Shown piece after piece: positions 7,351 to 11,784 of a stretch of DNA of 64,000 nt. Position 1 is the stretch's first letter. Each line of letters starts with the position of its first letter. The translations under genes and the position numbers were made by a program. The stretch is from Mucilaginibacter corticis (lineage in GTDB: Bacteria; Bacteroidota; Bacteroidia; Sphingobacteriales; Sphingobacteriaceae). The notes beneath the pieces were generated by a model. It searched no databases. It saw nothing but the letters and a program-made list of their open reading frames with translations, and had not been told where the DNA came from. The stretch spans positions 1 through 64,000 of the forward strand of contig NZ_VLPK01000008.1 in assembly GCF_007558865.1 (NCBI RefSeq). The letters run 5' to 3'.

Positions 7351-7391
7351 CATTATGAATATTGTAATTTCTGTTTTATCCGCATTGGTAT

Positions 7392-7559
7392 AAATTACGA
7401 GGCCATTGACCACCTCATTCCGCAAATTCAATGAATCGATTCCGTAAAACTTTGACCATGCTAACTTATTGATTGCAATAAATAAATCGGAGAATCTAAC
7501 GACACAAATTGGTGCTCTAAAGCCTACGGTATTGCATGGTCAAGCCTTTCGGAATCTCC
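7392..7559 (+). repeat. 168-bp repeat unit, left copy (inverted relative to 8448-8615)
   Basis: Aligned by eye against the reverse complement of 8448-8615, this segment matches over all 168 positions with no gaps and about 17 mismatches (roughly 90% identity). Within the unit a motif ATTCCG...TTGACCA recurs three times: 7394-7412 (degenerate), 7438-7461, and inverted at 7534-7556. The last two act as imperfect terminal inverted repeats of a MITE-like core of about 115 bp. A short hairpin TTATTG-ATTG-CAATAA sits in the middle. No target-site duplication is evident. Two inverted units enclose the gene at 7690-8490. Confidence 0.85.
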
Positions 7560-7689
7560 TCTATACAATAGAACAATTAATATTTTGAAAAAAAACGTTA
7601 ATTTTAGTTGAAAAGTTTAATTACGAAATCGAACTGGCCCATCGAGTTTTCGTTGAGGAATATTAAACCATTTGATTAAAGTACTGAGG

Positions 7690-8490
7690 ATGAAAAATCT
7701 GACAAACGATTCTAAGAAAAGCTTAATCAAATTATTGGTTAGCGGTGGCATTAATTGCATAACGAACGAAGGGTTTAGAAAATTTTTGGATGCGCATGCA
7801 GTAACAATTGCAGGCGTAGGTGCTTCAGCTACCGGACTTGGCATTGTGGCCCCGATTGTCGCCGGAGTCGCGAATTCAATTTCTTCAAATATTGCAAGTA
7901 ATCATGTCAACAAATTAGCCAATGTTGACGATTTATTGAGCTGGATAGAAAACAGCGATCCCGGTAGCATCAATCATGACTTGGAAAAGTCCATCATCCG
8001 CGCGGGCATTAATGCTTTTAAGTTTATTGAAGTCTTATATATCAAAGGCATAAAGCAAGATGAGACCTTTTGGCTGTCCTCTGAACCTGACGAAAAAAAA
8101 GAATTTTTAAGTAAACTTAAAAAATTTTTCCGACAAGCGAATGAAGACCTGAAAAGAGAAATTACCTACATTAAAATCCAGCGCAAATTTATCCAAAAAC
8201 CCCAGCCTTTACTAAAAGCCTTGTCGGATTACATTCTTATAGGGCCTAATGGCAACCTATCACCAGCAGATCTCAAGAAGTTCAAGGATTTTTATATTTA
8301 TAAAATGCCTTATTGTTTCGATCTGGCCTTTAAGGAAGAGTTAAAAAGTAATGACCGGAGTTATAAAGCTTTTCAAATGTGGATCGCAGAAGGGATTCAA
8401 AAGCAAAATATTCATATTCTACATCTCCAGGAAAAAGCGCTCAAAGTGGAGATTCCGAAAGGATTGACCATGCAATACCTTAGGCTTTAG
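7690..8490 (+). CDS. STAND/NACHT-like N-terminal fragment inside an inverted-repeat cassette
   Basis: A 266-aa protein read from ATG 7690; an in-frame TTG at 7672 is less likely. Residues 38-66 form a Gly/Ala-rich hydrophobic stretch that could insert in a membrane. Residues 98-175 are charged helices. Residues 208-243 (YCFDLAFKEELKSNDRSY, then KAFQMWIAEGI) resemble a segment I associate with the N-terminal regions of bacterial STAND/NACHT-TPR proteins, where the NTPase would follow. Here the last 14 codons lie inside the right repeat unit, so the natural C-terminus seems to have been replaced. The gene is clearly more A/T-rich than its surroundings, suggesting horizontal origin. The family link is tentative. 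Confidence 0.6.
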   Translation: MKNLTNDSKKSLIKLLVSGGINCITNEGFRKFLDAHAVTIAGVGASATGLGIVAPIVAGVANSISSNIASNHVNKLANVDDLLSWIENSDPGSINHDLEKSIIRAGINAFKFIEVLYIKGIKQDETFWLSSEPDEKKEFLSKLKKFFRQANEDLKREITYIKIQRKFIQKPQPLLKALSDYILIGPNGNLSPADLKKFKDFYIYKMPYCFDLAFKEELKSNDRSYKAFQMWIAEGIQKQNIHILHLQEKALKVEIPKGLTMQYLRL

Positions 8491-8615
8491 AGCACCAAAT
8501 TGTGTAGCTGGCTTTTCCGATTTATTTATTGCAATCAAGAAATTAGCATGGTCAAAGTGTTACGGAATCGATTTACTGCATTTGTGGAATGAGGTGGTCA
8601 TTGGCCTCGGAATTT
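8448..8615 (-). repeat. 168-bp repeat unit, right copy (inverted relative to 7392-7559)
   Basis: This unit is the reverse-complement partner of 7392-7559. The motif ATTCCG...TTGACCA occurs at 8451-8473, inverted at 8546-8569, and inverted in degenerate form at 8595-8613. Its two outer ends also look alike: GTGGAGATTCCGA on the inner side and GTGGAAATTCCGA on the outer side (about 8446-8619), so the copy may itself be a mobile unit of about 174 bp. It contains the last 14 codons of the gene at 7690 and the last 17 or so of the gene at 8560, which converge on it. Confidence 0.85.
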
Positions 8616-8886
8616 CCACCTGGCAATCTTCCGCATATTTTTGCGTATCCAAAATGTGTTGATGCCAAAAGAGGTCAACCAAACGGTTAGGTACGATTTC
8701 TTTGTCCGGATATGTCCTTTTCAAGGTTAAAAACTTTTTATATTCGGCTTCTGCATATTCACATTGAACTTTTGTCCATCCGGGACCTTCTTCCTTGTCC
8801 TGCATTTTAAGTTTTACCATCGAAAAATCAATAGCATTTATATCAGACATGAATAAAGGAGATGTTATTGTAAATGTTTCGCTCAT
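8560..8886 (-). pseudogene. glycine-rich domain-containing-like protein, 3' end replaced by repeat unit
   Basis: A 108-aa frame starting at ATG 8886. Residues 1-90 look like a real protein: EEGPGWTKV, then VDLFWHQHILDTQKYAEDC, close to the D-L-F-W-H-x-H motif of the DUF1399/GRDP-like family. In that family a His/Phe-rich block normally follows the Asp-Cys. Here the sequence instead runs into the right repeat unit, and the last 17 residues are encoded by repeat DNA. The missing 3' portion is not found left of the cassette. It is probably a truncated, inactive gene, although a short product could still be made. Confidence 0.6.
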
Positions 8887-9458: not shown

Positions 9459-10124
9459 CTAGATGATTTTATTGTCTTTGCAGTAGGCGACCAGTTGCTC
9501 GTTCTTTGAGAAATCCAGGGTTTCTTTAATGAGGTTCAGCCGTTTTTCAACGCTGCTCAGGCCTGCGGGTTTGATGTTGTTTTCCAGGAAATAAGCAGGG
9601 ATGTCCTTTTGGAGCGTACCTTTGGCGAGTTGCGAAATAATGGCGATTTCATAGTTACTGAAATCATGCGCGTTCTTTGTTCTTACGGTTTGCTGCAGGC
9701 TCGGGGAGATATACTTTCTCCCTTTAAAGATCGCCTCAATGGCATCTTTTAGTTCGATAGCGTCACTTCGGCCTTTCCGTACAAAACCATTGATCTGCTG
9801 GTCTTCGAAAAGTTTGTGAACCACTGCTCCGCTGGATTCGGCAGAAAATACGAGTATTTTTAAGGCTGGCTGCATTTTTCTTACCGCTTCGATGAGGTCC
9901 CTGCCGGTAGTGATCTTTTGCTCCCGTCCGTCCTCATCAAAGGAAAGGTCGGTAATTAACAGTTGGTAGGGGTTGCTTTCCAGTAAGGCGGTTTTTAGCC
10001 GGAGCAGCGCGTCATCACAGTAATACGCGTAGTTATGGACGGTTATCCCCAATGTATTCAGGGTTTGTTCCACGGTGAGTTTTATGCTTTGGTGATCTTC
10101 AGCGATGAGTACATTTTCAAACAT
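9459..10124 (-). CDS. response regulator, receiver plus divergent LuxR-like HTH
   Basis: A 221-aa protein from ATG 10124 (MFENVLIAEDHQ); the start overlaps the end of the upstream kinase by 8 bp. The receiver spans residues 1-125 with D10, phospho-Asp D59 in LLITDLSF and K117. Residues 150-215 (NYEIAIISQLAKGTLQKDIP) form a divergent NarL/LuxR-type helix-turn-helix. It should be phosphorylated by the TPR kinase encoded just upstream. Targets may include the adjacent Cys-rich genes. Pairing is supported by overlap; targets are inferred. Confidence 0.85.
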   Translation of the reverse strand: MFENVLIAEDHQSIKLTVEQTLNTLGITVHNYAYYCDDALLRLKTALLESNPYQLLITDLSFDEDGREQKITTGRDLIEAVRKMQPALKILVFSAESSGAVVHKLFEDQQINGFVRKGRSDAIELKDAIEAIFKGRKYISPSLQQTVRTKNAHDFSNYEIAIISQLAKGTLQKDIPAYFLENNIKPAGLSSVEKRLNLIKETLDFSKNEQLVAYCKDNKII

Positions 10125-11784
10125 ATGGACAGGTGATTTTAATTTGCAGGCCCGTACCTGAGCTGCTGTCAAAAGTAATGGCACCGCCGATCGTTTTTAT
10201 ACGGTTTCCCGTATTTTTCAACCCGTTGCCTTCAGCCGTACCTGCCGCCATACCGATGCCATTGTCTGTGTAAAGGATCGTAGCCTTATCGCCACTGGGT
10301 TCAAACCGGATGACCACGTTGGTGGCATGGCTATGTTTGCGCATATTGACCATCAGTTCCTGCAAAATGTATTTGAGCTCTGTCTTGTACAGCGGATCTA
10401 TATGGTCCCAGAACTCAAGACTGTTACCGACCAGTGAAATCCTGGTTGTATCGGTCGCAAATGCTTTCAGCCTTGCGGAAAGGTTCTCGTGAAAATGCGC
10501 TTCAGCAGCCGGCGTGATCTCGTAGGAAATGTCCCGTGCCCGTTCATAGATTTCGTCGATATGATTGACCAGCCAGTCTTTATCCGGCACATCGTCATTT
10601 TGAACTTTTTTTAACAGGTAATAAATATCGTTGGCCAGCGTATCGTGTACTTTTTTTGAATCTTTCAGCTGGGTATCCCGGACTGCCGCCAATGTAGCGG
10701 CCTGTTGTTCCTGTTTTCGTTTCCTGTACCAGAAAAATAAAGCGATAAAGGTTCCAATTACAGCTGCTATGATCACCCCGATGATCACACGCTGCCCTAA
10801 AATCTGGTATTTGGCATTTGTATTGTCTTTTTGTAATCTCAGGTTATCTGTTTTGGCTTTTTCGGTATTATACCTGATCAAGGCAAACTGATTTTTGGCG
10901 GCACTGCGCGCGGTTTCCAGGCTGTCACTCAATTTTTGATAACGGGCAAAATAACCTTTCAGTTCTTTTTGGGGGCCTGTACTGATCAGTTTCTCCAATG
11001 CTTCCAAAACGTCGTCAGGACTGCCGAGTTTACTTGCTACAGTATACATTTGATGTGAATACCACAAGGAAGAATCGGGTCTTGAGCTTTTATAAAAATC
11101 AGCCAGGTGCGCGTAGCTGGAATTTTGGCCCCAAAGATCTTTTTCTTTTACCCGCATGGCCAGCGCCTTTAACAATTCAGGCGCCGCGTTGTACGAGGGA
11201 TGATACAGCCATCGGGCGGTAGTGCTATTGGACAAAATACGGGCATAAGTTTCGGGCTCTTTGGCCTTCAATAGGGTTGAATCGTAGATGCGGATCGCTG
11301 GTTGGTATTCCTTGTTTTCCCGGTAAGCCAGGGCTTTGTTATTGAATAGAACAAGTTTATAACTCGGCCCGTCGGAATATTTGATGGCCAGATCAAAAAA
11401 GGCAATGGCGGCGCTATTGTTCCTTAAACGGATACTGGTCAGGCCTAATTCATTGTAAGTTGAAGAAAGGCATTGCCGGTCTTTTTCTTTCAGCGTATCT
11501 AAATATTTTAATGCTGCGGAAAGACTTTCCTGGCCTCCGAAATAATCCCCTGCATCAGACTGGATCGATGCCATATAGTTATAAGCAAAAGCAGCTTGCA
11601 AACTGTCTTTCACGCGCGTGGCGACCTTATTGAAATAGTAGAAGGCTGAATCGTCCTGATGGTAGAGAAAGGTCTTCGCTTTTTTGTAATCCGGGTCGTC
11701 TGCCACAGTAGCAGCCGGGCGCGGTTTGTTGCACGAAAGCAAAATGTTCAGGATCAGGATTGCCGGCAGTAGAAATTTTCCCAA
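10117..11784 (-). CDS. TPR-containing membrane sensor histidine kinase
   Basis: A 555-aa protein. A signal with lipobox LLSC (C18) is followed by TPR-like helices over roughly 30-290, a coiled coil (300-330), one membrane helix (332-352) and a kinase core. The core has KKVHDTLAND (H380, HisKA_3-like), N480 in the N box and DNGIGM at 507-512. The C-terminal GTGLQI replaces a long G2 loop, as is usual in this class. The TPR region would be periplasmic, and the lipid anchor plus membrane helix would fix both ends. It is coupled to the LuxR-type regulator downstream. Confidence 0.88.
   Translation of the reverse strand: MGKFLLPAILILNILLSCNKPRPAATVADDPDYKKAKTFLYHQDDSAFYYFNKVATRVKDSLQAAFAYNYMASIQSDAGDYFGGQESLSAALKYLDTLKEKDRQCLSSTYNELGLTSIRLRNNSAAIAFFDLAIKYSDGPSYKLVLFNNKALAYRENKEYQPAIRIYDSTLLKAKEPETYARILSNSTTARWLYHPSYNAAPELLKALAMRVKEKDLWGQNSSYAHLADFYKSSRPDSSLWYSHQMYTVASKLGSPDDVLEALEKLISTGPQKELKGYFARYQKLSDSLETARSAAKNQFALIRYNTEKAKTDNLRLQKDNTNAKYQILGQRVIIGVIIAAVIGTFIALFFWYRKRKQEQQAATLAAVRDTQLKDSKKVHDTLANDIYYLLKKVQNDDVPDKDWLVNHIDEIYERARDISYEITPAAEAHFHENLSARLKAFATDTTRISLVGNSLEFWDHIDPLYKTELKYILQELMVNMRKHSHATNVVIRFEPSGDKATILYTDNGIGMAAGTAEGNGLKNTGNRIKTIGGAITFDSSSGTGLQIKITCPYV

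What the first reader, a model, noticed from the sequence alone, without database searches (positions are those of the whole stretch)
7392..8615. 168-bp inverted repeat units bracketing an A/T-rich gene
Two 168-bp units in inverted orientation (7392-7559 and 8448-8615) align without gaps at about 90% identity. Each carries three copies of ATTCCG...TTGACCA, two of them arranged as terminal inverted repeats, so each unit looks like a MITE-like element. Together they enclose a 266-aa gene. No transposase is present. This could be a non-autonomous composite element, an invertible cassette or a recombination scar. I do not recognise the family.
Basis: partly seen in the sequence, partly recalled or inferred. 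Interest (0 to 1): 0.75.

Follow-up and report, generated by a model that had tools for sequence, protein, structure and literature searches.

The report
IS21-type mini-transposons flanking a gene
The two inverted 172-bp units are copies of a small, non-autonomous mobile element, widespread in Mucilaginibacter, whose ends match those of IS21-family insertion sequences; they probably ended up on either side of one unfamiliar gene by local insertion and rearrangement, not as a dedicated cassette.

Summary
Two units, 7389-7560 (+) and 8447-8618 (-), are 172 bp each and 89% identical without gaps. They belong to a dispersed ~171-bp element with sharp edges (TGGA...TCCA), found mostly as single intergenic copies in the own genome and in 84 of 150 genomes of the genus, Mucilaginibacter. 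A profile of the element aligns collinearly with the left and right ends of IS21-family (IstA/IstB) elements of the genus: repeats of ATTCCG-N8-TGACCA. It is best read as an IS21-type MITE. Its autonomous parent was not found, and the own genome has no strong IstB match. The right unit cuts off a GRDP-like gene exactly at its edge. The enclosed 266-aa ORF runs into the same unit and has no convincing relative in the genomes sampled. The two units are each other's closest relatives, as in two other inverted pairs, suggesting local homogenisation or common origin. Nothing positively supports an invertible cassette or a mobile composite. None of 40 copies shows a target duplication; this is unexplained.

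The parts
7389..7560 (+). unit W1, IS21-type MITE copy (172 bp; left edge TATA for consensus TGGA, right edge TCCT for TCCA)
   Evidence: profile and consensus matches; 89% identical to W2
8447..8618 (-). unit W2, IS21-type MITE copy (172 bp, intact TGGA...TCCA edges)
7394..7412 (+). W1 left repeat L1 (ATTACG...TTGACCA)
   Evidence: sequence; aligns with the outermost left repeat of IS21 elements
7417..7434 (+). W1 left repeat L2, decayed (ATTCCG followed by a degenerate TGACCA)
   Evidence: spacing as in IS21 left ends
7439..7458 (+). W1 left repeat L3 (ATTCCGTAAAACTTTGACCA), the best conserved part of the family
7537..7555 (-). W1 right repeat R1 (ATTCCGAAAGGCTTGACCA on the minus strand)
8452..8470 (+). 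W2 right repeat R1 (ATTCCGAAAGGATTGACCA)
8549..8568 (-). W2 left repeat L3 (ATTCCGTAACACTTTGACCA on the minus strand)
8595..8613 (-). W2 left repeat L1 (ATTCCGAGGCCAATGACCA on the minus strand)
7690..8490 (+). enclosed 266-aa ORF, no known family; its last ~14 codons and the stop lie inside W2
8560..8886 (-). GRDP-like (PF07173) gene fragment; about 89 native residues, then reads into W2 from its L edge
   Evidence: Pfam E 1.9e-5; a 174-aa homologue continues past the break

Best explanation
Each unit is a copy of a ~171-bp MITE that carries the transposase-binding ends of an IS21-family element (left and right repeats of ATTCCG-N8-TGACCA) and no transposase. It was presumably moved in trans by an IstA/IstB pair. 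W2 lies in, and cuts off, a GRDP-like gene at its left edge; the missing target duplication and missing gene remainder would fit an insertion accompanied by an adjacent deletion, as described for the IS21-family element ISPve1. W1 and W2 stand in inverted orientation around an orphan ORF through local insertion or rearrangement, and their high mutual identity reflects common local origin or gene conversion between neighbours. Shown: the dispersed family, its edges, the match to IS21 ends, the truncation. Inferred: mobilisation in trans, the deletion, and how the pair formed.
For: Dispersed copies in the own genome and in 84 of 150 genus genomes, mostly matched end to end; 63 of 400 genomes of the order, 4 of 22 genera, all in one family. 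40 full copies align with conserved TGGA...TCCA edges and unrelated flanks. IS21 ends were fixed by comparing identical copies; in 13 IS21-family loci the profile matches listed at E up to 1 fall at or near the termini, left part on left ends and right part on right ends (best E 1e-5 right, 7.5e-5 left). Two copies identical over 172 bp lie in unrelated immediate flanks in two MAGs. Copies are intergenic with varied neighbours. The GRDP-like frame leaves its homologue's sequence exactly at the W2 edge. Literature: IS21 ends consist of multiple repeats L1/L2, R1/R2 (PMC10122671); ISPve1 (IS21 family) inserts with unidirectional 0.5-4.5 kb deletions next to its 5' end (PMC3281130).
Against: No target duplication in 40 copies, against 5-8 bp in 5 of 27 sampled IS21 copies; the copies are old (16-36% from consensus), so power is limited, but the two identical copies also show none. 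No autonomous element with near-identical ends was found, and the interior of the unit is not shared with the IS21 elements sampled. The single IS-end matches are weak on their own (up to 21 bits); the argument rests on their consistent place. Transposition was not observed.
Confidence: 0.82

Rival explanations
1. The pair with its gene is a composite non-autonomous transposon: two MITEs in inverted orientation, L ends outward, move the ORF between them as one unit.
For: Three pairs with two full units in + / - order are sister copies on the tree: window (support 0.94), G010 (0.83), G000 C11 (0.73). The enclosed ORF is A+T-rich and has no relative in the genomes sampled.
Against: No second copy of the cargo, no duplication at the outer edges, and the cargo differs between pairs. 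Most units are solitary. One sister pair lies in direct orientation (L062/L063). Both frames that meet W2 run into it.
Confidence: 0.12
2. Invertible cassette: a recombinase acts on the repeats and flips the ORF.
For: Inverted repeats with internal palindromic motifs; such repeats can in principle invert the DNA between them by homologous recombination.
Against: No recombinase seen next to it; the units occur mostly alone; the same motifs are IS21 ends. No reads were available to test both orientations.
Confidence: 0.04
3. Recombination scar: W2 is a hybrid of two MITE copies, formed by homologous recombination that joined a GRDP-like gene fragment to the neighbourhood of the orphan ORF.
For: Both converging frames end inside W2; the remainder of the GRDP-like gene was not found in the own genome; flanks show no duplication.
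Against: The search used a distant homologue and had no positive control; insertion with deletion explains the same facts.
Confidence: 0.25
4. The unit is a conserved structured RNA or regulatory element rather than a mobile element.
For: Conserved length and sequence blocks; a hairpin can be drawn.
Against: Folding z-score only -1.9, no Rfam match, the blocks are conserved in sequence, presence is variable, neighbours differ, and the ends match IS ends.
Confidence: 0.03

Closest known systems
IS21-family insertion sequences (IstA/IstB) of Mucilaginibacter
   Same: TGGA / TCCA-like edges and repeated ATTCCG-N8-TGACCA motifs in the same order and at about the same spacing at both ends
   Different: The unit is 171 bp instead of about 2.6 kb, has no istA or istB and a different interior; no target duplication seen
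Bacterial MITEs such as MITEPsy1 and MITEPsy2 (PMC3189936)
   Same: Short, no gene, terminal inverted repeats like those of an autonomous element, dispersed copies
   Different: MITEPsy1 (100 bp) is linked to ISPsy2 (IS5 family) and makes 4-bp duplications; MITEPsy2 has ends like ISPsy30 (Tn3 family); here the ends are IS21-type with several repeats
ISPve1 of Paracoccus versutus (IS21 family; PMC3281130)
   Same: IS21-family element whose insertion often removes DNA next to its 5' end
   Different: Autonomous element; its simple insertions make 8-bp duplications; a deletion next to W2 is inferred here, not observed

Membership tests
MITE | short, no transposase gene | tested here: met
   167-173 bp in 40 copies; no gene of its own
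MITE | terminal inverted repeats | tested here: met
   TGGAnATTCCGG...TTGACCA / TGGTCAA...CCGGAATnTCCA
MITE | multiple dispersed copies with unrelated flanks | tested here: met
MITE | ends match those of an autonomous element | tested here: met
   ends align with IS21-family ends, at family level only; no direct parent found
MITE | target-site duplication | tested here: inconclusive
   0 of 40 exact, no excess with mismatches; most copies are too old for a fair test, but two identical copies also lack one
IS21 family | istA and istB genes | tested here: not met
   none in the units; no strong IstB match in the own genome. The unit is therefore not filed as an IS21 element, only as carrying IS21-type ends
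IS21 family | multiple terminal repeats (L1/L2, R1/R2) | tested here: met
   definition from PMC10122671
IS21 family | mobilisation by IstA/IstB | not testable with these tools
   needs an experiment
Composite transposon | cargo and both ends move together, duplication at the outer edges | tested here: not met
   no outer duplication by inspection of the flanks; no second cargo copy in the genomes searched
Invertible cassette | both orientations in a population, dedicated recombinase | not testable with these tools
   no reads; no recombinase seen nearby

The most novel reading that the evidence does not exclude
Pairs of IS21-type MITEs, L ends outward, act as composite elements that capture and move orphan genes without making target duplications.
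Probability: 0.08. Interest if true: 0.7.

Novelty: new member of a known kind. Interest (0 to 1): 0.33.

Why it matters
It names a mobile family present in more than half of the sampled Mucilaginibacter genomes and explains the inverted repeats without a new system. MITEs with IS21-type ends did not turn up in the paper searches made here (open-access library only), so the family offers a way to test whether IstA/IstB move short ends in trans and why duplications are missing. Dispersed copies also provide homology for rearrangements.

Tried and rejected
Empty site: the flanks of the window pair have only distant matches in 150 genus genomes, and I saw no conserved order; the remainder of the GRDP-like gene gave nothing in the own genome (no positive control). 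Family libraries, plasmids and PDB for the enclosed ORF: nothing convincing. One weak hit among 395 genomes of the phylum (E 0.009) lies in a frame that reads as an unrelated surface-type protein and was taken as chance. Structure prediction of the ORF without an alignment: mean pLDDT 36.8, unusable. Rfam: none. Promoter and terminator scan: nothing above shuffles. Truncated unit matches in other genomes, checked as possible ends of an autonomous parent: no IstA/IstB match there at E 1e-4.

Full report
Observation. Two inverted arms lie at 7387-7562 and 8445-8620, 89% identical without gaps. Against dinucleotide-preserving shuffles of the same 2.4 kb the match is far beyond chance (228 bits against at most 42.8 in 40 shuffles). 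With the family consensus the units are 7389-7560 (+) and 8447-8618 (-), 172 bp each.

Family. In the own genome (5.3 Mb, 14 contigs) the unit has several further copies, on C7, C11 and C12. In relatives the first search found matches in 20 of 60 genomes, the own one included. A profile built from the copies gave 40 full-length units of 167-173 bp with conserved edges TGGA...TCCA and no conserved flank. The consensus matches 84 of 150 genomes of the genus (70 of 118 of high quality), mostly from end to end, and 63 of 400 genomes of the order, in 4 of 22 genera of one family. An exact-pattern scan of named genomes gave 17 stretches, 15 of them titled Mucilaginibacter; 16 of the 17 carry strong matches to the profile, and the one titled Turicibacter (L156) only a short weak one. 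The genus name Mucilaginibacter is inferred from these titles. The copies lie between genes, next to varied neighbours.

Identity of the ends. Full IstB matches occur in many genomes of the genus. The own genome has none: its best match (34 bits, in a frame of about 505 aa) has counterparts in nearly every genome of the genus, as an AAA+ housekeeping protein would (inference). Comparing multi-copy IS21-family elements of G034, G002, G026, G010 and G068 fixed their ends: left ends read, for example, TGGAGATTCTGATGAAAGTGACCATCCCATTCCGGGGCAAACTGA..., with several repeats, and right ends close with, for example, CACGGAATAGCCTGGTCAACATCCCCGGAATACCTA. The profile of the unit aligns with left ends from its first base and with right ends up to its last bases; the matches listed at E up to 1 in 13 loci lie at or near the termini (ends fixed directly in five element types, elsewhere by position). 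Published work describes IS21 ends as multiple repeats L1/L2 and R1/R2 recognised by IstA (PMC10122671). I therefore read the unit as a MITE with IS21-type ends. The interior is not shared with the IS21 elements sampled and no parent was found, so the link is to the family, not to one element. Truncated units elsewhere had no IstA or IstB beside them.

Mobility. Two copies in MAG contigs L160 and L161 are identical over 172 bp, although the upstream 2.3 kb (metG region) is 84% identical and the immediate flanks are unrelated. This suggests recent movement or exchange. In L163 two diverged units stand head to tail with 7 bp between them.

Target duplications. None of the 40 copies has an exact duplication of 4 bp or more, and allowing mismatches gives no excess over shuffled flanks. 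Among 27 IS21 copies with both ends located, I see 5-8 bp duplications in five (L102, L135, L136, L140, L146). MITE copies are 16-36% from the consensus, so old duplications would often be unreadable; the two identical copies also show none. Possible reasons: deletion on insertion, as for ISPve1 of the IS21 family, which made unidirectional deletions of 0.5-4.5 kb next to its 5' end (PMC3281130); insertion without working IstB, which is reported to be required for correct duplications (PMC10122671); or later recombination between copies. None of these was tested.

The window pair. The GRDP-like frame (8886 down to 8560) follows its 174-aa homologue in L123 up to ...KYAEDCQ and then runs into W2 exactly at its TGGA edge. 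Its missing part was not found beside W1 or in the own genome (the latter without a positive control). From the other side the enclosed ORF also runs into W2 and takes its last ~14 codons from it, so it may be truncated too; no relative is known for comparison. It has no match in Pfam, NCBIfam or PADLOC and only a weak PHROG hit (E 0.22), no relative in the 301 genomes of the family search, and one weak hit taken as chance among 395 genomes of the phylum search.

Why a pair. W1 and W2 share 21 departures from the consensus and have nine private ones each; they are sisters on the tree with support 0.94. The pairs in G010 (L056 11230/13885) and in G000 C11 (L018 4040/10889) are sisters too (0.83, 0.73) and have the same + / - order, with about 2.3 and 6.5 kb of different genes between them. 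A sister pair in direct orientation exists in G002 (0.997). Local transposition, gene conversion between neighbours (with loss of direct pairs by deletion), or composite movement could each give this. The pairs are too few to tell, and the composite reading has no positive evidence beyond orientation and relatedness.

Verdict. Ordinary mobile-element biology with a precise identification: a MITE family with IS21-type ends. Open points are the missing duplications, the unknown parent, and the origin of the sister pairs.

Noticed in passing
L053 4033-5024 (G010:C2:144033-145024): A unit is split into its left and right halves by about 0.86 kb that holds part of a frame resembling an IS110-type transposase (my reading of the translation, no family search run).
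   Followed up: partly
L160 3773(-) and L161 2490(+): Units identical over 172 bp lie downstream of metG in two MAGs, although the upstream region is 84% identical and the sequences next to the units are unrelated.
   Followed up: partly
L163 1694-1375: Two diverged units stand head to tail with 7 bp (CCTTAGT) between the TCCA and TGGA edges.
   Followed up: partly
L053 15346-15620: Overlapping partial unit matches in one orientation, as if a unit had an internal duplication or a nested copy.
   Followed up: no
L058 right flank of unit 7378(+) and L061 right flank of unit 13222(-): A 92-bp stretch, 88% identical in opposite orientation, next to units in two genomes; perhaps another short repeat family.
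   Followed up: no
window 9459-10800 and G000:C11:90734-92016: The sensor kinase / response regulator region right of the pair has a similar region (66% identity) on contig C11 of the same genome.
   Followed up: no
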